From the NCBI GenBank assembly GCA_029558515.1, contig JAKQEM010000019.1, forward strand, positions 1-60,095: a stretch of DNA of 60,095 bases. Direction: 5' to 3'. The DNA comes from a bacterium. Lineage in GTDB: Bacteria; Patescibacteriota; Gracilibacteria; Peribacterales; Peribacteraceae. Positions within the stretch are counted from its first letter, which is position 1. Each line of letters begins with the position of its first letter. Under the pieces are notes generated by a model. It was not told the origin of the DNA and did not search any database. It worked only from the letters and a program-made list of their open reading frames with translations. A program made the translations under genes and the position numbers. Below, one piece after another: positions 2,824 to 58,176 of this stretch.

Positions 2824-4059
2824 ATGTCTTGTGGCAGACGCATCGTCTTTCTCGGCATACTTCCCATCCTCACGCTCGCCGTGGGGTGGCAGCTGGGGCT
2901 CTCGGCGCAGCAGGCACCCGACGCGGCGCTCAACGGCTCGTTTGCGCCGATTCCCTCTGGGTCGGGCGCGGTGCAGGGCGACCCCGAACAGGAAGTGAAT
3001 ATTGATGTGCTCTGGGGAGTGTGGCGGCTGCTGCAATCGCACTACATCGATCCCGGTGCGCTGGATGCACGCGCGATGGTCCTGGGGGCCGTACGCGGGC
3101 TGGTGGCGGGCATCGGCGATCCGTACACCGCGTTCATGGCCCCGGAGGAAAATCAGGAATTCCGCGACGGACTCAGCGGGCATCTGGAGGGCATCGGTGC
3201 GGAACTCTCCCTGGAGAGTGAACGAGTGATCATCGTGGCACCGCTCAAAGGTTCCCCCGCTGAAACAGCCGGGCTGCAGCCGCGTGATGAAATTCTCGCC
3301 GTCGACGATGAGGACACAGCAGGGCAGAGCTTGCAGACCGTCGTCAGCAAGATCCGCGGCCCCAAGGGAACGACTGTCTCATTGACCATTCTGCGCGAAG
3401 GGGAGCAAGACGTCCTGACCGTGACGATCACGCGTGAGGACATCACCGTCCCCAGTACGGAGTACGAGGTGCGGACGGCGACCGGCGGGAGTGTCGGCGT
3501 TCTTTCCATCAATCAATTCGGCGATGAGACGGTGCCCGAAGTGCGTACGATCCTTCGGGGCCTGCAGCAGAATCCTCCCGATGCGCTCATCATCGATCTG
3601 CGGTACAACGGCGGCGGATACCTGGATGGAGCGGTGGATCTCTCCTCGATGTTTCTGACCGGCGGGACGGTCGTGCATGTGGAAGGCCGCGAGGAGACGG
3701 TGACGCACAATGCATCGGGCAGGCCGCTCCTGCCGTCGATTCCGCTCGCGGTGCTGGTCAATGAAGGGTCTGCATCGGCGTCCGAAATCGTGGCGGGTGC
3801 ACTGCAGGATCACGGTCGCGCCGTCATCGTGGGCATGCAGACCTTCGGCAAGGGTACGGTGCAAGAAGTGTTCGAATTGCCGGGGGGATCCAGCATGCGC
3901 GTGACCATCGCACGATGGAAAACGCCCGACGGCCGCATCATTGAAAAAGATGGCATTACGCCCGATGTGGTCATCGACCGCACGCGTGAAGATGCGGAAG
4001 CGGAACGTGATCCGCAGATGGAGGAAGCGCTGCGCGCAGTATTGGGTATTGGGTATTGA
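2824..4059 (+). CDS. S41 family carboxy-terminal processing protease (CtpA-like)
   Basis: A 411-residue exported serine protease. An N-terminal hydrophobic segment (about residues 8-28) should act as signal or anchor. A PDZ domain occupies roughly 115-200, and the S41 core follows with the GSASASE serine segment around 316-321 and the catalytic Lys343 in FGKGTVQ. Family members cleave C-terminal tails of envelope proteins. The chosen ATG gives a compact signal segment; an in-frame ATG at 2770 would overlap the divergent gene. A TATCCT hexamer lies 9 nt before the start. The last residues (VLGIGY) and the stop codon are encoded by the heptamer repeat starting at 4040, so the C-terminus has been rewritten by the repeat. 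Confidence 0.9.
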   Translation: MSCGRRIVFLGILPILTLAVGWQLGLSAQQAPDAALNGSFAPIPSGSGAVQGDPEQEVNIDVLWGVWRLLQSHYIDPGALDARAMVLGAVRGLVAGIGDPYTAFMAPEENQEFRDGLSGHLEGIGAELSLESERVIIVAPLKGSPAETAGLQPRDEILAVDDEDTAGQSLQTVVSKIRGPKGTTVSLTILREGEQDVLTVTITREDITVPSTEYEVRTATGGSVGVLSINQFGDETVPEVRTILRGLQQNPPDALIIDLRYNGGGYLDGAVDLSSMFLTGGTVVHVEGREETVTHNASGRPLLPSIPLAVLVNEGSASASEIVAGALQDHGRAVIVGMQTFGKGTVQEVFELPGGSSMRVTIARWKTPDGRIIEKDGITPDVVIDRTREDAEAERDPQMEEALRAVLGIGY

Positions 4060-4147
4060 GTATTGAGTATTGGGTATGTGCCGCGTGTTTGATGCAAGGT
4101 TTTTTTGCATGTTCCCTCAATACCTCCTACCCAATACTCTATACTCT
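4040..4147. repeat. Paired inverted heptamer arrays at the protease/RNase H junction
   Basis: The left arm (4040-4078) repeats TATTGGG or TATTGAG about five times and contains the protease stop codon. The right arm (about 4117-4147) carries the complementary CCCAATACTC units and ends in TATACT, 6 nt before the RNase H start. The spacer has an ATGCAA...TTGCAT hairpin and TGTTCCCTC. A similar composite sits at 54666-54745. Confidence 0.85.
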
Positions 4148-4151
4148 CGTC

Positions 4152-4826
4152 ATGCTGCGCCTCCCCGCCGCTCTCGAGCGCCGGCTCACGGAACTCTTCC
4201 CGCGCATCCGGGAACGCGAACGTTTCATCATCGAAGTGCTGGAGGAAGCGATGAAAGAGCGGCCTTCTCCGGAAGACGACCGGCCGTCCGCCATCGGCGG
4301 GACGCTGCATCTCTTTTCCGACGGCGGTTCACGCGGCAATCCCGGCCAGGCGGCCATCGCGTACATTCTGGAAGATCCCGTCCGGGGCGAAGTGTTGAAG
4401 GAGGGGAAAGAGCGCATCGGCGTGGAGACCAACAACGTGGCGGAGTACCGCGCACTCATCGAAGGACTGAGAGCCGCGCGAAAATTTCAACCCAATCGTC
4501 TCATCTGTCATCTGGATTCCGAGCTCGTCGTCCGACAACTCAACGGCGAGTACCAGGTGAAAATTCCCGCGCTCAAAGCATTCGTCGATGAAATCCGCGA
4601 ACTCTCCGCGGACCTTCCGGACGTCGTCTTCGTACACATTCCACGCGCCGACAACTACCGCGCCGACGCGCTGGTCAACCGCGCACTCGATGAATTGCCC
4701 GCGCCGCCGTATGCCCCGCGACCGTCCGCGCAGCCCCCCCTCTTCACCCGGCGCTCCATTCCCCCGCCGCGGGAACTGCCGGGCAATCTCTACCGCGAGT
4801 CGCAGCGGAACCCGTACGATCGATAA
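4152..4826 (+). CDS. rnhA: RNase HI-like protein
   Basis: A 224-residue protein with an N-terminal extension of about 50 charged residues before an RNase H fold. Motifs are LFSDGGSRGNPG with Asp57, ETNNVAEYRALIEGL with the second acidic residue, CHLDSELVVRQL with Asp122, and HIPRADNYRADALVN for the last Asp. All four acidic positions of the family appear present, so it should cleave RNA in RNA-DNA hybrids. The start is placed at MLRLPAAL because upstream codons are repeat-derived and a TATACT hexamer lies 6 nt before this ATG. The next gene starts 7 bases after the stop, suggesting co-transcription. Confidence 0.85.
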   Translation: MLRLPAALERRLTELFPRIRERERFIIEVLEEAMKERPSPEDDRPSAIGGTLHLFSDGGSRGNPGQAAIAYILEDPVRGEVLKEGKERIGVETNNVAEYRALIEGLRAARKFQPNRLICHLDSELVVRQLNGEYQVKIPALKAFVDEIRELSADLPDVVFVHIPRADNYRADALVNRALDELPAPPYAPRPSAQPPLFTRRSIPPPRELPGNLYRESQRNPYDR

Positions 4827-4832
4827 TTTCCC

Positions 4833-6230: not shown

Positions 6231-6237
6231 AAAGTGC

Positions 6238-6266: not shown

Positions 6267-6274
6267 ATTTCTGC

Positions 6275-6538
6275 ATGCCTTCGCAACCTGCCACCACTCG
6301 CATGGTCAGTATTCGCTCTTTTCGCGAAAATATGACCAAATTTCTGCGTGAATCCCAAGAGCATAATGTGCACTTCATTGTCATGCGTCATGCGGAACCC
6401 GTGGCGCGTGTGACACCTTTGAAGACGAAACGTCTGACTATGCGAGAATTTGAACAAGAAATTGCAGAAGCACGGGAACAGGTGAAGCGGGGAGAGGTCT
6501 TTACACAGAAGGAGATGGAGGAGATGCTTGGCATGTGA
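6275..6538 (+). CDS. Phd/YefM-type antitoxin
   Basis: An 87-residue protein. MVSIRSFRENMTKFLRE is the typical Phd/YefM N-terminal DNA-binding segment, followed by IVMRHAEPVARVTPL and an acidic, helical C-terminus that would wrap the toxin. The ATG at 6275 lies 8 nt after the -10; an alternative is the Met at 6302. The stop overlaps the toxin GTG start (GTGA). The family neutralises RelE/ParE-like toxins and represses its own promoter; the palindrome in the promoter fits this. Confidence 0.85.
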   Translation: MPSQPATTRMVSIRSFRENMTKFLRESQEHNVHFIVMRHAEPVARVTPLKTKRLTMREFEQEIAEAREQVKRGEVFTQKEMEEMLGM

Positions 6539-6801
6539 CAATCGAGTACACAAAACGAGCACGGGCGGATCTTGTACGTTTTCCTCCGGACATTTCTCGT
6601 CGTATCCTGCAGAAGATGTCTTGGTTTGCGCAGCAGGATGATCCTCTCTCCTTTGCCAAGCGTCTTCGCAATTCCGCCCGCGGCACGTACCGTTTTCGCA
6701 TCGGAGAGTATCGGGCAGTGTGCGATGTAAGTGGCGACGCGCTGCATATTCTTCATGTGCTTTCCATCAAACATCGCAAGGAAGTGTATCGCGATATCTG
6801 A
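6535..6801 (+). CDS. RelE/ParE-type toxin
   Basis: This 88-residue basic protein shows the RelE fold pattern: IEYTKRARADLVRFP at the N-terminus, a central RLRNSARGTYRFRIGEYRAVC, and a C-terminal strand ending SIKHRKEVYRDI. The RYRIGDYRVIY-like core and the HRKEVY tail are characteristic of RelE mRNA interferases. It starts with GTG overlapping the antitoxin stop, so the pair is translationally coupled. Whether it cleaves ribosome-bound mRNA or acts as a ParE-like gyrase poison cannot be decided from sequence alone. Confidence 0.85.
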   Translation: MTIEYTKRARADLVRFPPDISRRILQKMSWFAQQDDPLSFAKRLRNSARGTYRFRIGEYRAVCDVSGDALHILHVLSIKHRKEVYRDI

Positions 6802-6903
6802 AGTGTTGTCGGATGGAGGAGAAGAGGAGTTCATACTGCGTCCTCTGCCCCATGATGTCATCAATGTACTGCATGAACATACTGCCGGTATTCCACAGGT
6901 TCC

Positions 6904-12600: not shown

Positions 12601-12808
12601 GCTTGCTGCAAAAGCCGAGGATGACGGCGGCATCAAGTACGTGGAATTCTTCCTCGATCGCCGCCTCCTCACCACGCGCCCCAAAAGTCCCTTTGCGTTG
12701 GAGTGGGAGCAAACTGCGGCGCCGGGTACGTACGAACTGCGGGCTGTCGCCACGGATTTGGCCGGCAACACGAGCGAAGACAGCGTGGAACTGACGATTG
12801 AAGAATGA
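9674..12808 (+). CDS. Bifunctional penicillin-binding protein (PBP1A-type) with C-terminal Ig-like domains
   Basis: A 1044-residue class A PBP. A proline-rich cytosolic start precedes one membrane helix (about 55-75). The GT51 glycosyltransferase domain follows with Glu131 in EDERFYERG and RKLKELVLGCQLESRYDKD. The transpeptidase has S451-S-F-K454, SRN in GASRNIPAIKAY, and K646-T-G-T. It polymerises and crosslinks peptidoglycan. The last 170 residues are two Ig-like (Big-type) modules not found in model PBP1A proteins. A TACACT lies 10 nt before the ATG. The stop codon is the first unit of the TGAGTTA repeat array. Confidence 0.92.
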   Translation: MGNGFSMRSLAASQASQRSEPMRASPPPPPRRPHGERRFRMTGAWARRGGMRQWCKRLALLCIGGGALYFLFLWWTLPDISDPRSLIASQSSVIVDRNQTELYRLFDEENRTFIPGEQIPQHMKNAIVAIEDERFYERGCLDMRAIARVFYRFGQAGGASTLTRQLARNALDLKGENLLSRKLKELVLGCQLESRYDKDELVNLYLNWIPFGQNAYGIELASRTYFNAAAQDLSLAQSAILAALPQRPTYFSPYGKHVRTTVTDEVLRQIASGRITKASQIDDEDVSIGLLGTFVGTGSLTVYVGGRTDQVLRNMQDSEFITEAERLSALEELHTITFSPSRESIRAPHFVLWVKAQVEELLASGAEEGILSQGGLIIETTLDWRMQQAAEQVVLNRREDISRLYEGHNIALVAAEAGTNHILAYVGNADYNDDEHDGKVDMARAPRQPGSSFKPLVYAAAFERGYGPGTVLFDVPTKIGEETPQNFDGGFWGLTTVRRALGASRNIPAIKAYFLGGEDQGVLDIATRLGAPSPARQKQAFLESNPDFSYGWPLALGAGETPLLEMTQAYATFANGGILKPLVSIRRIKDRRGNILYESDENAEGTQAVDPRIAYQITSILSDVSARPNEFWQATLSVPGMATAAKTGTSNKCLKRDDRGNCTERKPDNLWTMGYTPNIVAGVWIGNADAAPLSVKAESLSQAAPLWKDFMVRAHKLLESPVASFAQPSGLVQPQISLLSGQLPTECTPISHRAGDLFLQERAPTQPDPACVRVSVDRVTGLLASPECPAEAAEERSYFSPREVMADRFPAWQQAVLAWAGGVMESYDALTGSFSGAGLPLPLIPVETCSLALTPGRSVQPRLTLLSPAQGGSATYPSFRPQYESVVGSSIREISATIDGKPAGSVTTEPFELQIRVPRSISEGGTHTLVLTLTDEYFNTAREEVTFRFEEDETDPTIRFITPRGPLTARSGTTISLAAKAEDDGGIKYVEFFLDRRLLTTRPKSPFALEWEQTAAPGTYELRAVATDLAGNTSEDSVELTIEE

Positions 12809-12890
12809 GTGACGAGTTATGAGTTGTGAGTTATGAGTTGTGAGTGATGAGTTCCTAGTCCCAAATTCCAAATCCCAAATCCCAAGTCCC
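12806..12890. repeat. Two adjacent heptamer arrays (TGAGTTA and CCAAATC)
   Basis: About six TGAGTTA/TGAGTTG-like units begin exactly at the stop of the PBP gene and are followed by about five CCAAATC-like units. The second array runs into CCCTATCCCCC, whose TATCCC hexamer is 6 nt before the lipoprotein ATG. Confidence 0.85.
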
Positions 12891-16108: not shown

Positions 16109-17458
16109 ATGAGCTCTCTCCTTTTTCAAGGTGGAACGATTGTTGCAGGCGATCGCACCACGAAAGACGATATTCTCCTGCGGGATGGCGCGATCGAAGA
16201 GATCGACCGGTTTGTGGAAGAGTACGACGCGGTGGACGACATCTCCGGCAAATGGGTATTCCCGGGGCTGGCGGATTGTCACGTCCATTTCCGTGAACCG
16301 GGATTTCCGGAGAAGGAGACGATGAAGAGCGGCGCACTCGCCGCGCGGGCGGGCGGCGTGACACTCTGCTGCGATATGCCCAACACCGATCCGCCCACCG
16401 TCACGACCGAGGCGTTTGCGGACAAAGTGCGGCGGGCGCAATCCGTCACCGATGGTGCGCTGCGGTTTTTCTTCGGCGTGCGGGAGGCCGCGCACCTGGA
16501 GGAACTGGCGCATTTGCTGGCGGATGATACGAAGGAGGGACGTCATCTGCGCGCGCATCTCTGCGGCGTGAAGATCTACTTGGATCACTCCACGGGCAAT
16601 CAGCGCGTCGATCCCGCTCTGCTCGATGCCGTATTTGCGTTTTGTGCCGCGCATGAATTGACACTGGTGGCGCACTGTGAAGATCCGGAGATCAATGCGC
16701 AATCCGCTCTGCAGAACACGCGCATGAACATCGCGGCACACTCACTCATTCGCCCCTCGTACAGCGAGATGTCCGCCATCAAGACGGTGCTGGCACTGGC
16801 CAAGACCCATGGAACGCACCTGCACATCGCTCACCTCTCCACCGAGGGCGGAGTGGGACTCATTCGCGCAGCCAAGGCGGAAGGCATCGCCGTCACGTGT
16901 GAGGTGGCCACGCACCACCTCTTCCTCTCCACGGATGACTACGAACGATTGGGTGCTCTCATCAAAGTGAACCCGCCCATCCGTTCGCCCAAGCACAGAA
17001 CGGCGTTGTGGCAGGGGATCAAGGACGGCGTCATCGACTGCATCGTGACCGATCACGCGCCGCATACGCTCGCGGAGAAGAACGTTGCGGAGCCTCTGCA
17101 GGCCCCCGGCGGTATTCCCGGCGTGGAGACCATGCTGCCGCTCTTGCTTTCGGTTGCTGCGGGGAAATGGCCGCACCCCGCGGAACCGCACGTCTCCTGC
17201 CCTCCCTTCACCTACGAAGACATCGTGCGCCTGTGCGTCGTCAATCCCAATCGCATTTTTCACCTCGGCGTCAGTGAAATCGAGGAAGACAAAGCGGTGG
17301 ATCTCGTGATTGTGGATCCCGCTAAGCAGTGGACCATTCGGGGAGCGGAATTACGTACGCAGTGCGGATGGACGCCGTACGAGGGCTGGATGGTGCAGGG
17401 AAAAGTGGAGCGGGTGATACGGAGGAAGGAGGACGTGGGACGAAGGACTAAGGACTAA
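16109..17458 (+). CDS. pyrC: Dihydroorotase
   Basis: A 449-residue amidohydrolase. H58-V-H60 in DCHVHFREPG, Lys155 in VKIYLDHSTG as the carboxylated lysine candidate, histidines in VAHCEDPE and LHIAHLST, and D315-HAPH in IVTDHAPHT give the full binuclear metal site. It cyclises carbamoyl aspartate, the step after PyrB. The start MSSLLFQGG is chosen because the family begins with a short strand there; an upstream in-frame ATG (16073) is less likely. The final residues (GRRTKD) and the TAA stop come from the GGACTAA repeat, so the end of the protein is repeat-encoded. Confidence 0.93.
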   Translation: MSSLLFQGGTIVAGDRTTKDDILLRDGAIEEIDRFVEEYDAVDDISGKWVFPGLADCHVHFREPGFPEKETMKSGALAARAGGVTLCCDMPNTDPPTVTTEAFADKVRRAQSVTDGALRFFFGVREAAHLEELAHLLADDTKEGRHLRAHLCGVKIYLDHSTGNQRVDPALLDAVFAFCAAHELTLVAHCEDPEINAQSALQNTRMNIAAHSLIRPSYSEMSAIKTVLALAKTHGTHLHIAHLSTEGGVGLIRAAKAEGIAVTCEVATHHLFLSTDDYERLGALIKVNPPIRSPKHRTALWQGIKDGVIDCIVTDHAPHTLAEKNVAEPLQAPGGIPGVETMLPLLLSVAAGKWPHPAEPHVSCPPFTYEDIVRLCVVNPNRIFHLGVSEIEEDKAVDLVIVDPAKQWTIRGAELRTQCGWTPYEGWMVQGKVERVIRRKEDVGRRTKD

Positions 17459-17503
17459 GGACTAAGGACTAAGGACGGAGGACGAGGGACGAAGGAAGGA
17501 AGA
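17437..17503. repeat. GGACTAA/GGACGAA heptamer array
   Basis: About nine units of GGACTAA, GGACGGA, GGACGAG or GGACGAA start inside pyrC and supply its TAA stop. No gene lies between here and 17547. Confidence 0.9.
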
Positions 17504-17854: not shown

Positions 17855-18496
17855 TTATTTTCTTTCTCTCCTTCCCTCTCGCACAATCCGATTCTCCTCT
17901 CGGGTCACATCCACTATCGTCGAGGGCGGCACAGGCGGGAGCAGACCGCCGTCCAGTATCAAATCCGGTTGGGCGGATCGGTCGGCAAATTGCGCGAGGA
18001 TGTCCTCGACACAGTACGTGTTGGCCAGGCCGTGCAGATTGGCGGAGGTAGTACTGATCGGTCTGCCGTACGCTTCGACCAGTGACTGGGCGTGGGGATG
18101 GGAGGAAACGCGGACTCCGAGTGTTGTTGTTCGTTGATTCGTTATTTCGTTAGTTCGTTTGTCGGTTTGTGGGATGGGGTGAAGAGCAAGAGGCGCATCG
18201 ATTCGTAAGGGCAGGATCAGGGTCAGCGGACCCGGGAGGTGCCGTGCCACAAGCTCCTCCGCATGTTCATTCCACTGTACATACTGTTCAGCCTGTTTGA
18301 CTGAGGCGAAGAGCGCGCTGACCGGCTGGGTTGCAGGTCGCTGCTTGATTGCAAACAATGTCGCGACGGCATGGGGATTGCCGAGGTCGCACGCCAGTCC
18401 GTAGCACGTCTCCGTCGCATGGGCGACGACTCCGCCCTGCCGGAGGATCGCGAGGGCTTCGGCAAGAGCCGATGGGGAGAAGGGGAGGAGATGCAT
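17855..18496 (-). CDS. tsaC: Sua5/YciO/YrdC family threonylcarbamoyl-AMP synthase
   Basis: A 213-residue protein of the family that makes threonylcarbamoyl-AMP for the t6A modification of tRNA. Motifs are GGVVAHATETCYGLACD, KQRP as the conserved lysine/arginine loop, LPGPLTLILP and GRPISTTSANLHG. Between LILPLRIDAPL and GVRVSSHPHAQSL, residues about 109-124 (QTDKRTNEITNQRTTT) are encoded by TTCGTTA-like repeats and have no counterpart in the family. The start MHLLPFSPS is chosen because everything upstream is repeat. TACTCT in the upstream repeat lies 10 nt before this ATG. Confidence 0.85.
   Translation of the reverse strand: MHLLPFSPSALAEALAILRQGGVVAHATETCYGLACDLGNPHAVATLFAIKQRPATQPVSALFASVKQAEQYVQWNEHAEELVARHLPGPLTLILPLRIDAPLALHPIPQTDKRTNEITNQRTTTLGVRVSSHPHAQSLVEAYGRPISTTSANLHGLANTYCVEDILAQFADRSAQPDLILDGGLLPPVPPSTIVDVTREENRIVREGRRERK
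18118..18170. repeat. TTCGTTA heptamer array inside the Sua5-like gene
   Basis: Units such as GTTCGTT, GATTCGTTATTTCGTT and AGTTCGTTTG occur every 7 bases and are translated in frame, adding about 16 residues to the protein. Confidence 0.8.
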
Positions 18497-18859
18497 GGCG
18501 AAGAACAGAGTAACAGAGTAACCGAATAACAGAGTAACAGGGCAGACGGTCTCTGATAGCAGGGAATAATCCTTTTCCGTGACAGAGGGGTTCCGCGAAC
18601 CACGGGGGGTGAAGAGGTGTTGCCCGGTATTTCCAAGCATACAAACGATGCGATAGAGTGTTGTTCCGTCATGGAGTATCCCCACGCAGGCACGTCCGGA
18701 GGGGTTTTGGTTCGCGGTGGCTTCTTTTGCTTCTTTTCTGTGCGGCAGACAGAAAAGAAGGAAGTGTCCTCAATACACCTCCTTCAAATAACACTCCTCA
18801 CCCTTCGACTCCCCCTCGACAAGCTCGGGGTCGCTCAGGGTGAATCCTGCACAAACCCA
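18497..18859. other. Gene-free interval with repeats and a hairpin
   Basis: This 363-base interval has no convincing gene. At 18503-18542 are octamers AACAGAGT/AACCGAAT. At 18730-18760 the perfect inverted pair CTTCTTTTCTGT and ACAGAAAAGAAG surrounds a 7-base loop. At about 18797-18845 is a CCTTCGACTCC...GACAAGCTCGGGGTCGCTCAGGG element of the kind dispersed in many bacterial genomes. The hairpin may end transcription of the minus-strand gene that follows. Confidence 0.65.
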
Positions 18860-20551: not shown

Positions 20552-20686
20552 AGAATAACAGAATATCAGAATAACAGAATAACAGGGGTTTTCTGAGGAG
20601 GATTTTCGTCTCCGTTACTCTGTTACTCTGTTACTCCGTTACTCCGTTACTCCGTTACTCCGTTACTCCGTTACTCTGTTACTCCC
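20552..20686. repeat. Octamer arrays between dnaE and the Cys-rich gene
   Basis: AGAATAAC-type units (20552-20590) and about nine GTTACTCC/GTTACTCT units (20612-20686). On the minus strand the latter read GGAGTAAC and contain the dnaE stop codon TAA. The same octamer family appears at 18503-18542. Confidence 0.9.
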
Positions 20687-23600
20687 CGTACTTCCCAATC
20701 ACCTCCTCCACTTTCTCCTGCAATTCTTCGCTGAAGTCGACCGTGACGGGGAGCGGAATGATTTGCCCGCCGATTTGCAGTGCGATCGCATCCGTGCCCG
20801 GCGACAGCGCGAAGAGGTCTTTGAGATCCAGCAGCAGTTGGCGCGGGGCGCGGGGCGGGAGGAGGATCGTATGCGCAGCATGTTCCTGTAGAGACGTTCC
20901 GTCGGAACGTCTCGCCTGCGTCCCCGCGCCCCGCGGCGCATCCGGTGATGCACCGGGCAGGACGGGTGGTGGCATGCCGTCCGCGATCCACTTCGCCAGC
21001 GGACCAAAAAGTTCCTCGCCGGGTGCCCCCGTCGCCTCCTCCGTGCGGACGACCACGCGTTCACCAGCGATGACATTCCCTTCTTCGTCCACCGCTTCCA
21101 CCGCTTCCTCCTCCTCTATGACCTTTCGCGCGACTGAGAGACCGCGTTTCGCTTCTTCCTCATCGAAAACACCGTCCTCTTTGGCGCGCCTGATCATCGC
21201 GGAGAGAGACGAACGTTTCACCGCATCCGCGCGCATCTGCAGTTGTCCCATGCGCAGATCCACCGTTCCGCCGACCACGAGCACCGTGTCGGGCTGTTCC
21301 AGCACCGCACCCACTTCATCGTAGATACGCGGGAACAGCGTCACTTCCATTTTGCCGGTGGGATCTTCCAGCGTGACGATCGCCATGGTTTCCCCTTTCT
21401 TCGTACGGATTTTCTTGATGCCTTCCTGGATGCCCGCAACCGTGATCTTCTTGCCGACATCGGCGGCTACGATCTCTCCGATGAGCCGCGCCTTGCGCCC
21501 GATGTACGCGCGCATGCCGGCAAGCGGATGGCTGGACACGTACAAACCCAACGTCTCTTTCTCCCACTGGAGTTTCTGCTGCGGCGTAGCCGGAGGCAGC
21601 GCCGGAAATTCGATCTTCGCCATCGCCACGTCCGCCCCCAGCGCGCCGAAGAGGTCCGTTTGCGATCCTCCCGAAGCTCCCTCCGCTCTCCCGTAATCGG
21701 CGATGAATTGCTGATGTTCCACGAGTGCGCGGCGCTCTCCCAAGCTGTCGAGCGCACCGGATTTGGCGAGGGATTCCAGCAGTTTCTTGTTGAGTATTTT
21801 GGCCGGAAGCCTTCGTGCAAAATCTTCGATGGACACGAATTTTCCGTGAGATTCGCGTTCTTCAATGATCAAATACACCGAGGATTCTCCGATGCCTTTG
21901 ATGGCGGAGAGGCCGAAACGTATTGCGTATTGGGTATTGGGTATTGGGGTTTGGTCATTGGTCATTCCGTCATTCGGCGAAGGCGGGATCACCGTGAAGT
22001 GACTCAGGGATTCATTGATATCCGGAGGCAGCACTTCGATGCCCATCGAGCGACACTCCTCGATTTCAATCATCACGCGCTCGGTGTCCTGCGCATCGGA
22101 ACTCAGCAGCGCCGCCATGAATTCCGCGGAGTAATTGGCTTTCAGGTAGGCGGTTTCGTAGGCGATGCGTGCGTAGCCCACCGCGTGCGATTTGTTGAAG
22201 CCGTAGCCGGCGAAGGGAGTGATGACATCATCAAAGATCTCCTCCGCAAGGTTCCGGGGATAGCTATTTTCGATCGCACCCTTGATGAACTTGTCACGCT
22301 GCGCATCCAGTTCCTTCTTGATTTTCTTCCCGATGGCCCGCCGCAGCAGATCCGCTTCGCCCAAGCTGAATCCCGCAAATACCTGCGCGATCTGCAAAAT
22401 CTGTTCCTGGTAGATGCCGATGCCGAATGTCGGCTCCAGAATCGGGCGCAGATCTTCGTGAACGTACCGCACTTTCTCCCGGCCATGCTTGCGCTTGATG
22501 AAGCTGTCGATCCACTCCATGGGACCCGGGCGATACAGCGAGACCATGGCAGTGATGTCACCGAATTCCGTGGGCTTGAGTTGACGAAGATACCGACGCA
22601 TTCCCGCCGATTCCAACTGGAAGACACCGGTGGTGTCGCCGCGTTGCAGCAGGCGGAATGTCTCTGCGTCATCGATGGGAATGGCGGCGATGTCGATGGT
22701 CGTCTCACGCGTGCGTTTGATGATTTCCAGCGCCGTCTGGATGACGGTGAGGTTCATGAGTCCCAGGAAATCCATCTTCAGGAGACCGAGTGCTTCCAAT
22801 GGTTTCGCGCCGTACTGCGTGATGATGGTGTGCTCATCTTTGGGCGCGCGCTGCAGCGCTGTATAGGTGGCGGCGGGTTCGGGAGTAATGATGACGCCGC
22901 AGGCATGCACCGAGACGTGCCGCGCTTTGCCCTCCAGCTTGAGCGCGTTATCAATCACTTTGCGATAGAGTTCGTTGCCTTCGTAGACGGCCTTCAGCTC
23001 GTGCGTTTCCAGCGCGTCTTTCAGTTTCACACCCGGTCGTTCGGGAATGAGCTTGGCCAACGTGTTCATCTCCAGGAATGGGATGCCGAACGCCCGACCC
23101 ACGTCCTTTACGGCTGCGCGCGCCGCCAGCGTCCCGAAGGTGCAGATCTGCGCGACATGATCGGTGCCATACTTCTCACGAACGTACTGCAGTACTTCAT
23201 CGCGTCGATTGTCAGCAAAGTCGAGGTCGATATCCGGCATGGAGATGCGTTCGGGATTGAGGAACCGTTCGAAGAGCAGTCCGTGCGGTATGGGATCGAC
23301 GCCGGTGATGCCCAGGCAGTAGCTCACCATCGATCCGGCCGCCGAACCGCGCCCCGGCCCCACGGTGATGCCGCGGCGCTTCGCCTCATTCACAAAATCC
23401 TGCACGATCAAAAAGTACCCGGCGAATCCCACTTGTTTGATAACGCTCAGTTCATAGTCCAAACGCTGCCGCAGTTCGTGCGTTTCTTGGCTGTACCGCC
23501 GCCGGAATCCCGCTTCACACAATTCGATGAGATACTGTTCTTCCGTGCATCCTCCCGGGACCGGAAAGCGGGGAATGCGATTTTCGCCGAATTGAATGGT

Positions 23601-37212: not shown

Positions 37213-37298
37213 GGGATAGGGATTTGGGATTTGGGATTGGGGATTGGGAACTCACAACTCATAACTCACAACTCATGACTCGAAACTGGTAACTCGCC
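37213..37298. repeat. Heptamer arrays between sufS and sufU
   Basis: GGGATTT/GGGATTG units (about 37220-37250) are followed by AACTCAC/AACTCAT/AACTCGA units (about 37251-37298). Both have 7-base spacing and mirror the pair at 12806-12890 in reversed order. Confidence 0.9.
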
Positions 37299-42163: not shown

Positions 42164-42190
42164 TCATCATCCATTATCCATTATCCATTC
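42164..42190. repeat. ATCCATT heptamer array
   Basis: CATCCATTATCCATTATCCATTCC-like units just before the DUF2304 gene. The TATCCA of the last unit lies 8 nt before the ATG. Confidence 0.75.
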
Positions 42191-42621: not shown

Positions 42622-43824
42622 ATGCAGACGATCCTCCTCATCTCCCCCTACTGGAAGGAATCCCACCGCTGGATGGTCAGCTCCGTGAAATTGGCGGAGC
42701 TGTGGCAACGGTTGGGGTATCGAGTGATCGTGGCGTGCATGGGGGATGGGGGAGAAGGAGCGCAGAACGCAGGACGCAGGACTGCGAGCATCGGGCGAAG
42801 GGTGAATGTCGAGGTGCTGTCTGAGACCCTGACGATCTATCGGAAGAAGGATTTCTTCCTGAAAGACCCCTGGAACTACGGCATTGCGTTTGGATGTTCG
42901 GGGATGGTGCGGCGGATCGTGCGTCAGGAGAAGCCGGATCATATCGTCGTCAATAAAGTGCTCTTCTGGACGTCTCTCTCGCTGTTGTCGCTGCGATTGC
43001 GGGGGCATCGGGTATTGCTCCTGACGGATGCGCTCGTGGGGATGACGTGGTGGCCGCGGGGAAGAGTGCCCCGCATGGCGGCTGCGCTCTACGCGTGGAC
43101 GATCGGTTGGTTGATCCTTGGCGCCGCAAGCCGCGTCGTTTTTTTCCATCCGCAGCCACTCAGCCTTCTGCGGCAATTGGGGATTGCACGCAAGAGCCGG
43201 GTGATTCCGACAGGAATTGATCCGCTTCCCTTTGGGAAACAAGTGACCAGTGACCGGCTGCCGGTGACGAGTGATCTGCCCTCGAAACTCGAAACTCGAA
43301 ACTCGAAACTCGTCATTACGTACCTCGGCCGTCTGGAATCCGTGAAAGGCGTCGATGATTTTCTCGCCGCCGCCGCGCCGCTGACGGAAGAGTATCCGCG
43401 CGTGCGGGTGCAGGTGGTCGGATGGTATGCAAAACCTCATCCGTTGGTGAAGGAGTATGAACGTCGTGTCACCTTTGCCGGACTGCGTGAGGACATTCCG
43501 CAAATCCTGGCCGCCACCGATATCTTTGTGCTGCCAAGTTACAGCGAGGGGCTCAGCAATGCCTTGATGGAGGCGATGGCTTCGGGTTGCGCCTGTATTG
43601 CGAGCGATGTCGGAGGGAACTCCTTTCTGCTCCAAAATGGCATCAGCGGCTTCCTGTTTCCGCCGGGAGATCGAGAAGCGCTCCGCAGTCATCTGCACAG
43701 GCTCATTGAGGATCCGGCCAAGCGCAAGGCGATGGGGGAAGCCGCGCGGAAGAGGATCGAGGAGACGTTCAGTTGGGAAGTTGTTGGAAGACGCTATCGG
43801 GAGTTCTTCGTAGAACATGCTTAA
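42622..43824 (+). CDS. GT4-type glycosyltransferase with two repeat-derived insertions
   Basis: A 400-residue GT-B enzyme. The C-terminal half has TYLGRLESVKGVDDFL, FVLPSYSEGLSNALMEAMASG and an AxxxGG nucleotide site. Two in-frame insertions are not part of the family: residues about 45-56 (GAQNAGRRTASI), coded by GCAGGAC heptamers, and residues about 206-232 (KQVTSDRLPVTSDLPSKL and the following ETRNSKL), coded by tandem CTCGAAA units. The second lies in the linker between the two Rossmann domains, where an insertion can be tolerated. TATACT lies 6 nt before the ATG. Confidence 0.88.
   Translation: MQTILLISPYWKESHRWMVSSVKLAELWQRLGYRVIVACMGDGGEGAQNAGRRTASIGRRVNVEVLSETLTIYRKKDFFLKDPWNYGIAFGCSGMVRRIVRQEKPDHIVVNKVLFWTSLSLLSLRLRGHRVLLLTDALVGMTWWPRGRVPRMAAALYAWTIGWLILGAASRVVFFHPQPLSLLRQLGIARKSRVIPTGIDPLPFGKQVTSDRLPVTSDLPSKLETRNSKLVITYLGRLESVKGVDDFLAAAAPLTEEYPRVRVQVVGWYAKPHPLVKEYERRVTFAGLREDIPQILAATDIFVLPSYSEGLSNALMEAMASGCACIASDVGGNSFLLQNGISGFLFPPGDREALRSHLHRLIEDPAKRKAMGEAARKRIEETFSWEVVGRRYREFFVEHA
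43237..43315. repeat. Heptamer arrays inside the GT4-type gene
   Basis: AGTGACC/GGTGACG-like units followed by four CTCGAAA units, all at 7-base spacing and translated in frame. An earlier array of GCAGGAC units at 42756-42788 lies in the same gene. Confidence 0.9.
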
Positions 43825-43860: not shown

Positions 43861-44032
43861 TTGGGCGATCAGGATCGTCAACCAATGGTACGTTCATTGT
43901 AGGCGGGTAAGGTGGATATGTCAATATCTTTGCGCTATCGTCCGATTGCCGCCGATTGGATGGGGCCGGCTTGGTGCGATCCATGGATCGTCAACCAATG
44001 GATCGGGGGTTCGATTCCCCTCGGCTCCACCA
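43861..44032 (+). ncRNA. tRNA-like element with duplicated hairpin
   Basis: Bases 43962-44032 begin GGGGCCG and end CGGCTCC-ACCA, and hold a standard T arm (GGGGG-TTCGATT-CCCCT). The middle 36 bases do not form D and anticodon arms. They form one hairpin, TTGGT...ACCAA, around the perfect palindrome CGATCCATGGATCG (43977-43990). A near copy of that hairpin (TTGGGCGATC, then GGATCGTCAACCAATGG) is at 43861-43888. It may be a degenerate or unusual tRNA or a tRNA-like domain. It is not a recognisable tmRNA. Confidence 0.5.
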
Positions 44033-44048
44033 ACGCGGCGGTATCGCT

Positions 44049-45227
44049 ATGACGCAACGCATTGTTTTGCTTTCGGCCTTCCTCTCCCCTTTTCGTTCCG
44101 GCGCGGAAGCCGCAGTGGAGGAAGTGGCTCTGCGGCTCAAGAACCGGTACGACATCACGATCGTGACCGCGCGACTTCGGAGAACGCTTCCGCCCGATGA
44201 TCACATCTCTCCCCTCTCCCGGCAGGCAAGCGGGCAGGAGGGAGAGGGGTCGGGGGTGAGGGTCGTGCGCGTCGGTATCGGCCACCCGATCGACAAATAC
44301 CTCTTCCCCTTCCTCGCGCCGTTTGCCGCACGACGGTGCAAGCCGCAGATCATCCATGCGGTGTTGGAATCGTACGCGGGACTGGCACTCGTGTGCTGTC
44401 GTTGGCTCGTACCCCGTGCCCGTCGCATCCTCACGTGTCAGAGTACGAACACGACGCTCCTCCTCGGATTGATGCATCGATCCGCCCATACCATCACCGT
44501 GATCAGCCGAGTCCTCCAGCGACGTGCTATGCAGTTTGGAACGCAGGCGACACTGATCCCCAATGGCATCGATCGCATCGCAATCGAGCGTGCGTGCCTT
44601 GGACACCCGAAGGTACCGGGACGGATACTGTTCGTCGGGAGATTGGAAACGATGAAAGGAGTGGATGTGTTGCTCAGGGCATTCCGGATGTTGGTGCGAG
44701 ATGAAGTGACCATGACAAAAGATATGAGTCATGAGTTGAGAGTGGTGAGTGACGAGGACGCAAGATGCAAGACGCAAGACGCAAGACTGTCTCTCCGCAT
44801 TGTCGGCGATGGATCGCAGTGGGAGATGTTGGAGAAGTTGGCAGTAGATCTGGGCATTCGTGATCGCGTGACGTTCGTCGGGTGGGTGAAGGTACCGAAT
44901 GTCTACGATGAGTATGCGCAGGCGGAGATCTTCTGCGGCCTCTCTCGCTCCGAAGCGCTGGGCAATGTCTTTTTGGAAGCGCAGGCGGCCGGCTGCGCGG
45001 TCATCGGGACAACGGTGGGCGGTATCCCCGACAGCGTGGAAAGTGGCGTCACGGGGCTCCTGATTCCTCCAGATGATGCGGATGCGGCGGCGGAGGCAAT
45101 GCGACGATTACTGGAAGATCCCGCAAAGCGACGGCGATTGGCGGAAGCGGGGAAGGCGCATGCAGCGGGGTATGATTGGGATCAAATTGCGGAGCGGTAC
45201 GGTATGATGTACGGAGCGTGTGTTTAG
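44049..45227 (+). CDS. GT4-type glycosyltransferase with two in-frame insertions
   Basis: A 392-residue GT-B enzyme. FLSPFRSGAEAAVEEVALRL starts the acceptor domain, NGIDRIAIERA follows the linker, and GRLETMKGVDVLLRAF, CGLSRSEALGNVFLEAQAAG and GGIPDSVESGVTGLL form the nucleotide-sugar site. Residues about 53-73 (SPLSRQASGQEGEGSG) come from a REP-like palindrome, and about 222-246 (TKDMSHELRVVSDEDARC and more) from tandem heptamers (GCAAGAC). Both lie in loops. The gene begins 16 bases after the tRNA-like element. Confidence 0.87.
   Translation: MTQRIVLLSAFLSPFRSGAEAAVEEVALRLKNRYDITIVTARLRRTLPPDDHISPLSRQASGQEGEGSGVRVVRVGIGHPIDKYLFPFLAPFAARRCKPQIIHAVLESYAGLALVCCRWLVPRARRILTCQSTNTTLLLGLMHRSAHTITVISRVLQRRAMQFGTQATLIPNGIDRIAIERACLGHPKVPGRILFVGRLETMKGVDVLLRAFRMLVRDEVTMTKDMSHELRVVSDEDARCKTQDARLSLRIVGDGSQWEMLEKLAVDLGIRDRVTFVGWVKVPNVYDEYAQAEIFCGLSRSEALGNVFLEAQAAGCAVIGTTVGGIPDSVESGVTGLLIPPDDADAAAEAMRRLLEDPAKRRRLAEAGKAHAAGYDWDQIAERYGMMYGACV
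44205..44268. repeat. REP-like palindrome in the GT4-type gene
   Basis: Arms CCCCTCTCCC (44211-44220) and GGGAGAGGGG (44240-44249), followed by TCGGGGGTGAGGG. Its complement is present in the GT2 gene at 46865-46893. Confidence 0.9.
44712..44790. repeat. Heptamer array inside the second GT4-type gene
   Basis: GAGTCAT/GAGTTGA/GAGTGGT-like units, then four GCAAGAC units, 7-base spacing, read in frame. Confidence 0.88.
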
Positions 45228-52946: not shown

Positions 52947-52969
52947 GCGCGCATTCTACGGATTTTCAC

Positions 52970-54232: not shown

Positions 54233-54371
54233 GGAGGGGGGAAAGGGGAGAAAGGGGAGAAAGGTGAGGAAGGGCAGGAAGGGCAGGAAGGTAGGGAAGG
54301 CAGAAAGAGCAGGAAGGTAAAGAAGGAGTGAGGGTAAAGACGTTCCGCCGGAACGTCTCCTCTCCTCTCCT
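54233..54371. repeat. Tandem 9-base units and a palindrome
   Basis: AAAGGGGAG/GAAGGGCAG-type units of 9 bases (about 54241-54300), then the palindrome with arms AGACGTTCCG and CGGAACGTCT (54338-54358). The latter is the second copy of the palindrome found within dnaE. Confidence 0.75.
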
Positions 54372-54659: not shown

Positions 54660-54665
54660 GGGATG

Positions 54666-54745
54666 AGTATAGAGTATTGTGTATGAAGTATGGAGGGAAC
54701 AGGAAAACACGCCCAATACCCAATACTCCATACCCAATACTCCTA
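54666..54745. repeat. Paired inverted heptamer arrays upstream of the small membrane gene
   Basis: On the minus strand GAGTATTGGGTATGGAGTAT and further TATTGGG units begin right at the rpmH stop. A TTTTCCTGTTCCCTCC spacer follows, then ACAATACTCTATACTC before the GTG. Same order and spacer core as at 4040-4147. Confidence 0.85.
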
Positions 54746-54886: not shown

Positions 54887-54954
54887 AGCCGCGACAGCCT
54901 ACCCAGCACTCTCGGGGGGGTCAAGGGGATTTGACGAAGCAGCAAGCAACAGAT

Positions 54955-55485: not shown

Positions 55486-55493
55486 GGAACATG

Positions 55494-55776
55494 AGAATAA
55501 ATGCAAAATGGGAAATGCAAAATGGGAAATGCCCTTGGATTTCCTCCACCCCCGTCCCCTCCTCCATGGGAGGAGGGGTGACGCATCCCGAAGCAAGATC
55601 CCCCCTTCCTCCACCGGAGGAAGGGGCAGGGGGATGGAGGAAAGAAAATGAATGATGCCGATGCCGCAGGGCTTCCCCTTCACCCCGTGGCGCACGGGAC
55701 CCCCCACGTTGTTGTATTCAATGTGAACCGTGATGTCGCCTTCCCAATGAATCATTTCGCATTTCGCATTTCTCAA
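55494..55776. repeat. Repeat-filled interval between pheT and the adenosyltransferase gene
   Basis: Heptamer-like units (TGCAAAATGGGAAA, 55501-55531), two perfect hairpins (CCCCTCCTCC...GGAGGAGGGG at 55556-55578, CCCCTTCCTCC...GGAGGAAGGGG at 55602-55626), and at 55752-55797 GCATTTC/ATCCATT units that run into the end of pheT and hold its TAA stop. No gene seen. Confidence 0.85.
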
Positions 55777-58176
55777 TTATCCATTCCCAATTCCCCCCGC
55801 TTTCAGCACCTTCTCATGCTCCCGCTTCGCCTCCTCCTCCGTGAGCGTCCGGTCCGGCGCACGGAAAACGAAGCGAAGAGTGAGTTGATACGGATCATAC
55901 GTATGTTTGAGAGCATACAGATCTTGAACAGAAACGTTCTCGAGCAGATCGGAGCCGCGATGCAATCGATGCAACAGATCATGCAGAGGCTCCCGTTGGG
56001 TGCGCGGCACGGTGACATCGTAGGTGACGGAAGGAAACGCGGGGACCGATTGCGCCGTGACGGCAGCAGGCGAAATGGCCAACAGGAGCGTGCAATCGAT
56101 CTGCGCGGCCGCGGAGCGGAAGGGAAGACCCGTGCGCTCCCGCACGATCGGATGCAACTCGAAGAGGTGCCCGACGACCGTCTGCCCGAGGAGGAGATGT
56201 GCGCTGCGCCCCGGATGCATGTGCGGCGAGGGATGCGCGTTTTTCTGAACGGATATGGAGATGCCGATGCAGGAAAACGCCGCTTCCAGATGCGCTTTGA
56301 GACGGAGGAACGGATCGCGCAGGAGCGTCGTCTCCTCTGCGGCGGTGAGAAGCAATCCCAGTTCCATGTGCTCGGGAACCGAACGGGAGAAGACGTGCCC
56401 CCACTGGAAGGTGAGCAGGTCCCCGTCCGCACGCGGCAGATTGTCGGCGGCATGCTCCAGCAAGCGCGGCAACGTGGAGGGCTGCAGGTAGCGCGTGTCG
56501 GCACCGAGAGGATTGTGCACCGTGATCGCATCCTCCGGCGGCAGCTCACAGGAAGCCAGGTGCGCGGCACTGAGGAAGGAGAGGGGCACGAGTTCGAAGA
56601 AACCTTCCGCTCGCAAGGCATCGCGGAAGTGATGCAAACGATGATCGCGCTTGGACAGACGAACCTCCGCGACGGGCATCCGTCCTTCGATGCCATCGAA
56701 CCCATACACGCGTCCGACTTCCTCGATGAAATCATGCGCTCCCGTGAGATCGCGCAATCGCCAGAGCGGAGGCAGCACCGACCACACGCCGCGCGTCTTG
56801 CTCTTGCGCACGGTACAGCCGAGATCCGTGAGAATGCCTTCGATGGTGGTACCGGGAATATCGGCGCCCAACGTGGCGCGCACGGCATCGAGGGAGAGGG
56901 TCGAGGAAACAGGAACGCCGTTGCCACCCTTGGTATCGAGGGACGACGTGATCCGTGCGCCCGGAACGAGATCCAGGAAGAGTTGCAACGCACGGAAAAA
57001 TCCCCATTCCGCGCTGATCGGCGGCACTCCTTTTTCGTAGACGGTCGCGGCATCGGTGCGATGGCCGGTAGCGAGGATCGTCTTGCGAATGGTCGTGGGA
57101 TCCAGGGAAGCCGCATGCAGATAGATGTGTCTCGTGCGCTCGGTCGTCGAACTGCGCAACCCCCCTATGATGCCGAGCAGATCGAAGACGCCCGCATCGT
57201 CACTGAGGACCAGCGCACCGTCGGGCAGCACGCGTTCCACGTCATCAAGTGTGGTGATGCGTTCACCCTTGGTACTGAGGCGCAGGTGCACGTCTCCGCG
57301 GATGTCATCCATATCGAAGCTGTGGAGCGGCACGCCGATCTCCGTCGCCACGTAATTCGTGATATCCACGGGCAGGGTGATCGACCGCCAACCGACGGCT
57401 TCCAGACGCCGTTTCATCCACTGCGGCGTCTCGCCCATGCCGGTGAGGGAAAGCGTGCAAGCAAGGTAGCGCGGCACGAGATCGGGCGCATCGACATGCA
57501 AGGTGATCGCCGATGCTTCATCGGGAAATGGGGACGCTTTGAAGACGGGCTTCTTTTTCCATGTCGCAAGTCCGATGGCTACGCACTCCCGGGCGATTCC
57601 CAAGTGCGAGAACAGATCCGGCCGCATGGTGATGGCGGTGTTGTTGATGGTCAGCACCGTATCCGTCAGCCCCAACACCTCGCGAAGCGGCGCACCCATT
57701 TCGCATTTCGCATTTCGCATTTCGCATTTCTCCAAATCGATCACCGGTCTCTCCCCGTCTTCCGGCCGCGTCGGGAACAGTTCTGCAAGATCCAACTCTT
57801 CCGCCGCACAAAGCATTCCTTCACTCTGCACGCCGCGGATTTTCACAAGTTGAAGCTTCACCAACTCTGCTCCATGCCGCACCGTCGCACCCGGATGCGC
57901 CACCGCGACGAGCATTCCTTCGCGCAGATTGGTGCCGCCACAGACAATGGTTTTCTTCCCACGATCCGTTTCCACTTCCACGACGGAGAGCCTATCTGCA
58001 TCGGGATGTTTGCTCAATTGCAAAATTTTCCCCACGCAGCAATCACGCAGCAGCGCTCCCTGCTCTTCGATCTCCTCCACCTCCGCCGTGCATAAGGTCA
58101 GCCGGTCGGCGATGATCTGCGGATCGGTTTCGGTCCAGGTGATGAACTCACTGAGCCATTCGAGGGAGATCTTCAT
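55777..58176 (-). CDS. pheT: Phenylalanyl-tRNA synthetase beta chain
   Basis: A 799-residue protein. MKISLEWLSEFI is the family start, the tRNA-binding OB domain (about 45-150) has VCGGTNLREGMLVAVAHPGA, then the B3/B4 editing domain, the B5 domain (LDAVRATLGADIPGTTIEGI) and the C-terminal FDX-ACB domain (FPSVTYDVTVPRTQREPL). Residues about 148-159 (EKCEMRNAKCEM) are encoded by five tandem CGAAATG units between the first and second domains. pheS is not adjacent, which is unusual. The last residues (GIGNG) and the stop are also repeat-coded. Confidence 0.93.
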   Translation of the reverse strand: MKISLEWLSEFITWTETDPQIIADRLTLCTAEVEEIEEQGALLRDCCVGKILQLSKHPDADRLSVVEVETDRGKKTIVCGGTNLREGMLVAVAHPGATVRHGAELVKLQLVKIRGVQSEGMLCAAEELDLAELFPTRPEDGERPVIDLEKCEMRNAKCEMGAPLREVLGLTDTVLTINNTAITMRPDLFSHLGIARECVAIGLATWKKKPVFKASPFPDEASAITLHVDAPDLVPRYLACTLSLTGMGETPQWMKRRLEAVGWRSITLPVDITNYVATEIGVPLHSFDMDDIRGDVHLRLSTKGERITTLDDVERVLPDGALVLSDDAGVFDLLGIIGGLRSSTTERTRHIYLHAASLDPTTIRKTILATGHRTDAATVYEKGVPPISAEWGFFRALQLFLDLVPGARITSSLDTKGGNGVPVSSTLSLDAVRATLGADIPGTTIEGILTDLGCTVRKSKTRGVWSVLPPLWRLRDLTGAHDFIEEVGRVYGFDGIEGRMPVAEVRLSKRDHRLHHFRDALRAEGFFELVPLSFLSAAHLASCELPPEDAITVHNPLGADTRYLQPSTLPRLLEHAADNLPRADGDLLTFQWGHVFSRSVPEHMELGLLLTAAEETTLLRDPFLRLKAHLEAAFSCIGISISVQKNAHPSPHMHPGRSAHLLLGQTVVGHLFELHPIVRERTGLPFRSAAAQIDCTLLLAISPAAVTAQSVPAFPSVTYDVTVPRTQREPLHDLLHRLHRGSDLLENVSVQDLYALKHTYDPYQLTLRFVFRAPDRTLTEEEAKREHEKVLKAGGIGNG
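57697..57733. repeat. Heptamer array inside pheT
   Basis: Five exact GCATTTC units at 7-base spacing on the plus strand, read in frame as CEMRNAKCEM on the minus strand. The same unit is found at 55752-55772, at the end of the gene. Confidence 0.92.

What the first reader, a model, noticed from the sequence alone, without database searches (positions are those of the whole stretch)
4040..57733. Heptamer arrays dispersed through the segment, often holding stop codons and -10 hexamers
Seen directly: at least fifteen arrays with 7-base spacing (a few with 8 or 9) and different unit sequences (TATTGGG, TGAGTTA, CCAAATC, GGACTAA, ATCCATT, GCATTTC, GCAAGAC, octamer GTTACTCC and others). Several contain the stop codon of the upstream gene: the S41 protease, PBP, pyrC, dnaE and pheT. 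Several also provide the TANNNT hexamer 6-10 nt before the next start: RNase H, lipoprotein, the Cys-rich protein, Sua5-like, SufU, DUF2304 and the 95-aa membrane protein. Established knowledge: heptameric STRR repeats are known in cyanobacteria. Inference: a comparable family in this lineage may serve as a modular gene-boundary element.
Basis: partly seen in the sequence, partly recalled or inferred. Interest (0 to 1): 0.87.

Follow-up and report, generated by a model that had tools for sequence, protein, structure and literature searches.

The report
Slippage-born heptamer arrays at gene ends
Short DNA words of seven to nine letters, repeated head to tail, are scattered through this small bacterial genome, mostly between genes; similar arrays occur in many bacterial phyla, and they look more like copying-slippage products kept where, and in the direction in which, they do least harm than like a purpose-built gene-boundary device.

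Summary
The arrays are real. Periods 7, 8 and 9 dominate: 12/4/1 arrays in the window, 45/15/9 in 400 kb more of the genome, none in Markov sequences. All five named stop-codon overlaps are correct. The -10 claim fails as a rule: TANNNT lies at -15 to -11 in 6 of 25 array-bearing starts against 61 of 226 others. Arrays avoid genes, yet 29 of 86 lie inside predicted CDS (67.6 expected); those in dnaE and pheT fill variable loops. A strand rule holds: G-rich strand coding at stops, C-rich strand coding before starts and inside genes. It recurs in loci of 56 foreign genomes and was reported for Xanthomonas and Nostoc heptamers (PMC4692102). Arrays at the S41, pheT and PBP gene ends reach threshold in none of 38 family orthologues scored. 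About a third of non-CDS arrays have an inverted partner (19 of 56; controls 8 of 80). Best reading: a new host, probably Peribacteria/CPR, of known bacterial heptameric repeats, made by slippage and sorted by stop and start codon content. Unit sharing within the genome and G-polarity of stop-free units remain unexplained.

The parts
4039..4077 (+). (GTATTGR)5.6, holds the TGA stop (4057-4059) of the S41 protease gene; G-rich strand is the coding strand
4118..4146 (+). opposed C-rich, array-like arm (CAATACC..CCCAATACTCTATACT), 5 nt before the RNase H ATG at 4152; TATACT at 4140-4145 is a possible -10
   Evidence: hairpin z -4.7
12805..12853 (+). (GAGTTRT)7 at the TGA stop of the PBP gene (12808)
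   Evidence: 0 of 12 scored relatives reach threshold here
12859..12890 (+). (CCAAATC)4.6, C-rich array following the previous one
17419..17496 (+). (GGACTAA/GGACGAA)11 over the stop (17458) of the pyrC-like amidohydrolase gene
18126..18170 (.). octamer (TTCGTTAN) array in a weakly supported ORF
18504..18540 (.). octamer (AACAGAGT) array in a weakly supported ORF
20552..20585 (-). octamer array; on the coding strand (CTGTTATT), ends 6 nt before the 561-aa protein start and holds TATTCT at -12; inverted partner of the next array
   Evidence: (z -9.3)
20610..20685 (-). octamer array; on the coding strand (GAGTAACR)9, holds the TAA stop of dnaE
   Evidence: z -5.6
21919..21966 (-). heptamer array inside dnaE; coding strand CCCAATA, fills a length-variable loop of the protein
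37219..37248 (.). (GGGATTT) array in a divergent intergenic region
37249..37281 (.). (AACTCAY) array directly following
42165..42189 (+). (CATTATC)3.6, C-rich on the coding strand, ends 6 nt before the DUF2304 ATG
43281..43312 (+). (CTCGAAA)4.6 inside a glycosyltransferase ORF (42622-43824)
44757..44787 (+). (GACGCAA)4.4 inside a second glycosyltransferase ORF (43998-45227)
54235..54291 (-). nonamer array (AGGGGAGAA), C-rich on the coding strand, 2 nt before a predicted start (54232)
54665..54695 (.). weak (GAGTATG) array, inverted with respect to the next
54712..54743 (.). weak (CCCAATA) array
55499..55532 (.). weak (AAATGCA/AAATGGG) array
55753..55795 (-). array over the stop (55777) of pheT; coding strand GGGAATT/GAAATGC
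57697..57730 (-). (CATTTCG)4.9 inside pheT, about 5 extra residues in a variable loop

Best explanation
These are 7-9-nt simple sequence repeats of the kind already known in many bacteria. Inferred: they start and grow by local duplication of whole units (replication slippage or unequal exchange), turn over fast, and survive only where extra DNA is tolerated, between genes and in variable protein loops. Shown: their strand follows a rule. The strand rich in stop and start codons (G-rich) is the coding strand mainly at gene ends, where the array itself can supply the stop, since a period of 7 or 8 puts a unit's stop codon into all three frames within three units. The strand poor in starts and stops (C-rich) is the coding strand before starts and inside genes. 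So stop overlap is mainly the result of a sieve (inferred), not a designed terminator of translation. A minority have an opposed copy near by and could fold as hairpins in the RNA; that may add or derive from secondary effects.
For: Periods 7/8/9 and their multiples dominate. Neighbouring units are identical more often than when unit order is shuffled: 82 against a mean of 60.9, 0 of 1000 shuffles reach it (47 arrays of 4 or more units). Depleted in CDS: 29 of 86 inside, 67.6 expected. In dnaE and pheT the in-gene arrays sit in loops of variable length in relatives, and L026, L032 and L041 carry other arrays in one C-terminal DnaE linker region. Lineage-specific: S41, pheT, PBP 3' ends 0 of 38 scored orthologues at threshold; the GTATTGG unit has 54 hits here (overlapping registers counted; 3 for the reversed control) and 1-3 in 3 of 39 relatives. 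Codon content: arrays within 5 nt of a stop close all three frames as read in 13 of 17, reverse complement 2 of 17; arrays within 40 nt of a start hold 0.49 start codons per 30 nt as read, 2.44 reversed (17 arrays). Polarity here: nearest edge a stop 21 G:13 C, a start 1 G:20 C, p=1.7e-5; inside 6 G:23 C. Foreign loci: stop<=10 nt 44 G:5 C, starts 13 G:26 C, p=3e-8; one vote per genome 23:3 and 8:15, p=1.2e-4; without the queried unit 18:3 and 6:10, p=0.005. Prior art agrees: PMC4692102 section 13; PMC4679880 sections 7 and 15.
Against: Foreign arrays at or just after stops whose units have no stop in either strand are still 11 G:1 C (plus 1 without skew), though 7 of the 11 hold the queried unit, so a stop sieve alone is not enough. 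Arrays more than 5 nt after a stop carry no start codons as read but 1.43 per 30 nt reversed (17 arrays), wider than a start-site sieve needs. Without the queried unit and with one vote per genome the foreign rule is only 9:2 against 4:7, p=0.08; in 24 family arrays stop 4:0, start 2:4, p=0.08. Different 20-kb pieces of this genome share exact units in 2.8% of pairs (788 pairs, GTATTGR left out) against 0.34% with foreign arrays and 0.56% with letter-shuffled units, which suggests copying between loci. 19 of 56 non-CDS arrays have an inverted partner (z<=-2) against 8 of 80 controls. That no in-gene array closes all frames as read (0 of 29) is true by definition and counts for nothing. Alternating units (ABA) are rarer than in shuffles (10 against 22.1). 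No mutation rate was measured.
Confidence: 0.6

Rival explanations
1. Functional boundary element: opposed arrays fold into a hairpin between the stop of one gene and the leaderless promoter or start of the next, and stop read-through or protect the 3' end of the RNA.
For: Opposed arrays from stop to start at 4039/4118 and 20552/20610, and in L070, L052, L062, L069, L054 and others of the 18 loci folded; partner z<=-2 in 19 of 56 non-CDS arrays against 8 of 80 controls; at the dnaE 3' end the four genomes with opposed arrays (own, L030, L034, L040) have fold z -2.7 to -6.8, the 18 others between -2.0 and 1.3 (L036 dropped because that script took another ORF, L044 too short); upstream of dnaE in L040 opposed arms are followed by eight T; density tandem 1.61, convergent 0.79, divergent 0.32 per kb.
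Against: 37 of 56 arrays have no such partner; with flanks swapped between loci the median rank is 0.43 and only 18% beat all swaps; excess small in foreign loci, 44 of 174 against 17 of 120; no T-tract was seen after the stems printed (by eye), and in L052 a separate terminator-like hairpin lies inside the loop; L023 and L043 have an array at the dnaE stop without unusual folding; most family orthologues do without arrays at the same gene ends; convergent regions, where terminators are needed most, are not the richest.
Confidence: 0.22
2. Dispersed mobile repeat families: arrays or pieces are copied from locus to locus (gene conversion, break repair by copying, or an enzyme), then diverge.
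For: Excess exact unit sharing within the genome; the same units at 4039, 21919 and 54712, and at 55753 and 57697; the same compound order, G-rich array then C-rich array, at several loci. PMC6749651 (passages) also infers transposition of satellites in a bacterium.
Against: No shared flank, target-site duplication or terminal motif was noticed in the sequences read, but this was not tested; shared seeds or family ancestry could give the same (14 sampled relatives plus dnaE loci share exact units in 2.9% of their own pairs, same-genome pairs included, and 1.0% with this genome); 7-mer units in foreign loci are diverse, 64 types in 86 arrays.
Confidence: 0.13
3. Assembly or binning artefact.
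For: The source is a 49-contig draft genome.
Against: The arrays in the window are at most 78 nt; they occur in genes that stay open, in other genomes of the family, and the same unit occurs in isolate records such as a complete Sphingobacterium mizutaii chromosome and Nostoc strains.
Confidence: 0.02

Closest known systems
GGGAATC / GGGGA(Y)T heptamer repeats of Xanthomonas and Nostoc (PMC4692102; passages, sections 13 and 16 read)
   Same: Heptamers, mostly intergenic, close to stops on the coding strand and close to starts on the non-coding strand, rare between divergent genes, no functional class; GGGGATT is also one of the units here.
   Different: There one quadruplex-forming unit type; here some 30 heptamer consensus types plus octamers and nonamers, many of which lack G-runs for a quadruplex (inference).
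TAACTGA repeats of Beggiatoaceae, cyanobacteria and Bacteroidetes (PMC4679880; abstract, sections 7 and 15 read)
   Same: Heptamers; forward copies give stops in all frames and so end ORFs; reverse copies tolerated at the periphery of ORFs.
   Different: One unit, with the stop-bearing strand facing the next start; here the start-proximal strand is the C-rich, start-poor one.
Heptameric SSR excess in prokaryotes (Mrazek and co-workers 2007, as cited in PMC4692102; original not read)
   Same: Over-representation of heptamers in many bacterial genomes.
   Different: Not read, so strand or boundary analysis there is unknown to me.
Cyanobacterial STRR repeats (recalled; PMC4692102 mentions three tandem heptanucleotides in Calothrix)
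   Same: Dispersed heptamer arrays.
   Different: Units not compared here.

Membership tests
Bacterial heptameric simple sequence repeats | Tandem units of 7 nt in excess over random sequence | tested here: met
   57 period-7 arrays in 460 kb; 0 in Markov sequences
Bacterial heptameric simple sequence repeats | Mainly intergenic | tested here: met
   57 of 86 arrays (periods 7-9) not inside predicted CDS against about 18 expected
Bacterial heptameric simple sequence repeats | Length polymorphism through slippage | not testable with these tools
   No same-genus genome among the 39 relatives listed
Xanthomonas/Nostoc quadruplex heptamers | Unit GGGAATC or GGGGAYT | tested here: inconclusive
   GGGGATT is 4 of 57 period-7 arrays, most others differ
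Xanthomonas/Nostoc quadruplex heptamers | G strand coding after stops, non-coding before starts | tested here: met
TAACTGA repeats | Unit TAACTGA | tested here: not met
   no such consensus among the 30 period-7 types
Intrinsic transcription terminators | Stem followed by T-tract | tested here: inconclusive
   by eye no T-tract directly after the opposed-array stems; one relative (L040, upstream of dnaE) has eight T there; not scored
Lineage-specific gene-boundary element | Conserved at orthologous gene ends in the family | tested here: not met
   0 of 38 scored orthologues at S41, pheT and PBP; dnaE 5 of 22 others, other units

The most novel reading that the evidence does not exclude
A strand grammar common to bacteria: 7-9-nt arrays without C on one strand expand preferentially where RNA is made but not translated (after stops), through the G-rich non-template strand (for example R-loops), and the opposed C-rich arm before the next start completes a hairpin. 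The arrays would then mark, in DNA, the places where transcription and translation come apart.
Probability: 0.12. Interest if true: 0.75.

Novelty: new member of a known kind. Interest (0 to 1): 0.42.

Why it matters
It adds a 1.3-Mb candidate-phyla genome and loci of 56 further genomes to the few genera in which the strand rule of heptameric repeats was described, and it separates what codon content explains (stop overlap, absence before starts) from what it does not (G polarity of stop-free units, unit sharing within a genome). That makes the question testable with public strain collections.

Tried and rejected
Lineage-specific element: rejected, the unit GTATTGR occurs widely. Arrays as suppliers of the -10 hexamer: not enriched. 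Loss of mismatch repair as cause: no MutS_V match in 23 of 24 family genomes including this one (some only 84-88% complete; G016 has one above the cut-off), a match in 9 of 16 other class members; but period 7/8 arrays are as dense in outgroup genomes with MutS (7 in 170 kb, from 3 of 8 genomes) as in the family (25 in 547 kb), and the 3 sampled outgroups without it gave 0 in 46 kb. Hairpins as general rule: a minority only; a control with swapped flanks gave a median rank of 0.43, 18% better than all swaps, perhaps because other loci hold complementary arrays too; a strict unit-by-unit search found 2 inverted among 23 adjacent pairs here. Shared pan-bacterial unit vocabulary: units of foreign loci, the queried one left out, are diverse and no closer to this genome's than shuffled letters. 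Literature; none of the listed titles or abstract starts is about heptamer arrays in Peribacteria or other candidate-phyla bacteria (open-licence papers only, lists capped); the five-genome Peribacteria paper (PMC4736985, passages only) mentions short repeats at the origin.

Limits: gene calls are from a home-made codon-hexamer finder; starts are uncertain, so some arrays counted as inside genes may lie before a true start. Foreign loci used a simpler longest-ORF caller. The foreign loci were fetched with one C-free unit, 87 of 176 merged arrays hold it, and 80 loci come from about 58 genomes by accession prefix (56 with a scored array), so p-values over arrays overstate. In one search and the script took a wrong ORF for L036; one search repeats the dnaE 3' end with the right one.
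Full report
What was checked. The window is contig 31 (1-60095) of a 1,307,696-base, 49-contig draft genome, estimated 99% complete.

The arrays are real. With a run score (match +1, mismatch -2, at least 14) the window has 12 arrays of period 7, 4 of 8, 1 of 9, otherwise only multiples (14, 16, 18, 21, 24) and one of 26; five Markov sequences per period gave none. In 400 kb more of the genome the counts are 45, 15 and 9, with one each at 3, 6 and 12, three at 15, and none at 2, 4, 5, 10, 11 and 13; one Markov sequence per stretch gave none. Several weaker arrays appear in TRF at lower scores.

Position. Of 86 arrays (57 of period 7, 19 of 8, 10 of 9) in 460,095 bases, 42 are intergenic, 13 overlap a stop, 1 a start and a stop, 1 a start, and 29 lie inside predicted CDS; random placement gives 13.7, 2.2, 0.4, 2.1 and 67.6. 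In regions of 20-600 nt between predicted genes the density is 1.61 per kb between co-directional genes (43 arrays, 173 regions), 0.79 convergent (5, 36) and 0.32 divergent (3, 51).

Arrays inside genes. In DnaE the array encodes residues near 830-846; between the flanking HFT and IRFG motifs there are 23 residues here and 6 to 20 in the 21 relatives that can be compared (counted by eye; L036 wrong ORF, L044 cut off). L026, L032 and L041 have arrays with other units in one C-terminal linker region, columns 1560-1604 (L041's is a GA-rich octamer of low score). In PheT the array adds about 5 residues to a variable loop, 12 relatives compared. The other in-gene arrays were not tested by homology.

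Strand rule. Taking the nearest gene edge, arrays at stops have the G-rich strand as coding strand in 21 of 34, those at starts in 1 of 21 (p=1.7e-5); inside genes 6 of 29; 2 of 86 had no edge in reach (an array without skew is counted as C). Array-free 40-nt flanks show a much weaker tendency: 47% G-rich after stops (227), 34% before starts (266). The 17 arrays within 5 nt of a stop close all three frames in 13 as read and 2 reversed; the 17 more than 5 nt away in 41% and 35%; the 17 within 40 nt of a start have 0.49 start codons per 30 nt as read and 2.44 reversed. That none of the 29 inside genes closes all frames as read follows from the definition of an ORF; reversed, 28% do. A unit of 7 or 8 is not a multiple of 3, so one stop codon per unit closes all frames within three units; this explains most stop overlaps and was stated for TAACTGA by MacGregor (PMC4679880, section 15).

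The rule is not of this lineage. In those loci 179 arrays of period 7 or 8 gave 44 G:5 C within 10 nt of a stop, 14 G:7 C farther after a stop, 13 G:26 C at starts (1 more without skew), 20 G:37 C inside ORFs; 12 had no edge. Merged to 176 arrays with one vote per genome (56 genomes) it is 23:3 at stops and 8:15 at starts, p=1.2e-4; without the queried unit 18:3 and 6:10 (p=0.005), and with one vote per genome 9:2 and 4:7 (p=0.08). In 24 family arrays stop 4:0, start 2:4 with 1 without skew, inside 2:10, p=0.08. Xanthomonas and Nostoc G-rich heptamers were reported with the same rule (PMC4692102, section 13). Against a pure stop sieve: foreign arrays overlapping a stop or up to 40 nt after it, with no stop in either strand, are 11 G, 1 C, 1 without skew; 7 of the 11 hold the queried unit. 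Period-7 arrays are strongly asymmetric: |GC skew| of 0.8 or more in 58% here, 64% in foreign loci (raised by the C-free query), 2% of 622 control stretches; octamers here 0%.

Turnover and origin. Family relatives have arrays of the same periods at lower density, with mostly other units: 25 of period 7 or 8 in 547 kb from 14 genomes, against 76 in 460 kb here. GTATTGG with up to 2 mismatches has 54 hits here, overlapping registers counted, and 1-3 in 3 of 39 relatives. At the S41, pheT and PBP 3' ends none of 13, 13 and 12 scored relatives reaches threshold (score 11); L258 and L287 show degenerate opposed repeats by eye. At the dnaE 3' end L023, L030, L034, L040 and L043 have arrays, 5 of 22 with a stop in view, each with its own unit; in L030 the scored array begins 36 nt after the stop. 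Neighbouring units are identical more often than shuffled (82 against 60.9, 47 arrays), as local duplication predicts. Exact units are shared between different pieces of this genome in 2.8% of pairs, against 0.34% with foreign arrays, 1.0% with family arrays and 0.56% with shuffled letters: either copying between loci or common seeds.

Hairpins. 19 of 56 non-CDS arrays, 6 of 29 CDS arrays and 8 of 80 array-free stretches pair with a flank at z<=-2 against shuffled flanks (one of 86 arrays lay too near an end; both arms of a pair count). Against flanks swapped between loci the effect is weak (median rank 0.43; 18% beat all swaps). Clear opposed pairs run from a stop to the next start, for example 4039-4146 and 20552-20685. 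Foreign arrays: 44 of 174 against 17 of 120 random places.

Promoters. TANNNT starts at -12 in 28 of 214 well-supported starts with free upstream DNA, while Shine-Dalgarno-like words are at most 8 of 214 at any position although the gene finder favours them; this suggests leaderless transcripts. Arrays do not raise the frequency of TANNNT there: 6 of 25 against 61 of 226.

Verdict. A dense, many-worded instance of known bacterial heptameric repeats in a new host. Slippage plus a codon-content sieve accounts for most of what is seen; unit sharing, G polarity of stop-free units and the opposed pairs are left over and are the interesting part.

Noticed in passing
whole 460-kb sample; e.g. dnaE upstream regions in L022-L043: TANNNT peaks at -12 before starts (28 of 214), in several dnaE upstream regions as TGCTACACT 6-10 nt before ATG, with Shine-Dalgarno-like words scarce: probable leaderless transcription in this family.
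   Followed up: partly
family f1 genomes: No MutS_V match in 23 of 24 family genomes including this one; a match in 9 of 16 other class members.
   Followed up: partly
L026 about 1462-1487; L040 about 1451-1482: Telomere-like hexamer tracts (CCCTAA/CCTAACC) just upstream of dnaE in two genera; in L040 opposed arms are followed by eight T before the putative -10.
   Followed up: no
6302-6801: Small two-gene unit; the first reads like a Phd/YefM-type antitoxin (recalled resemblance, not searched).
   Followed up: no
55540-55640: Two near-perfect inverted repeats (CCTCCTCCATGGGAGGAGG and CCTTCCTCCACCGGAGGAAGG) between two arrays beyond the pheT end.
   Followed up: no
predicted starts of the 460-kb sample: C is 47% at each of -3, -2 and -1 before 214 predicted starts.
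   Followed up: no
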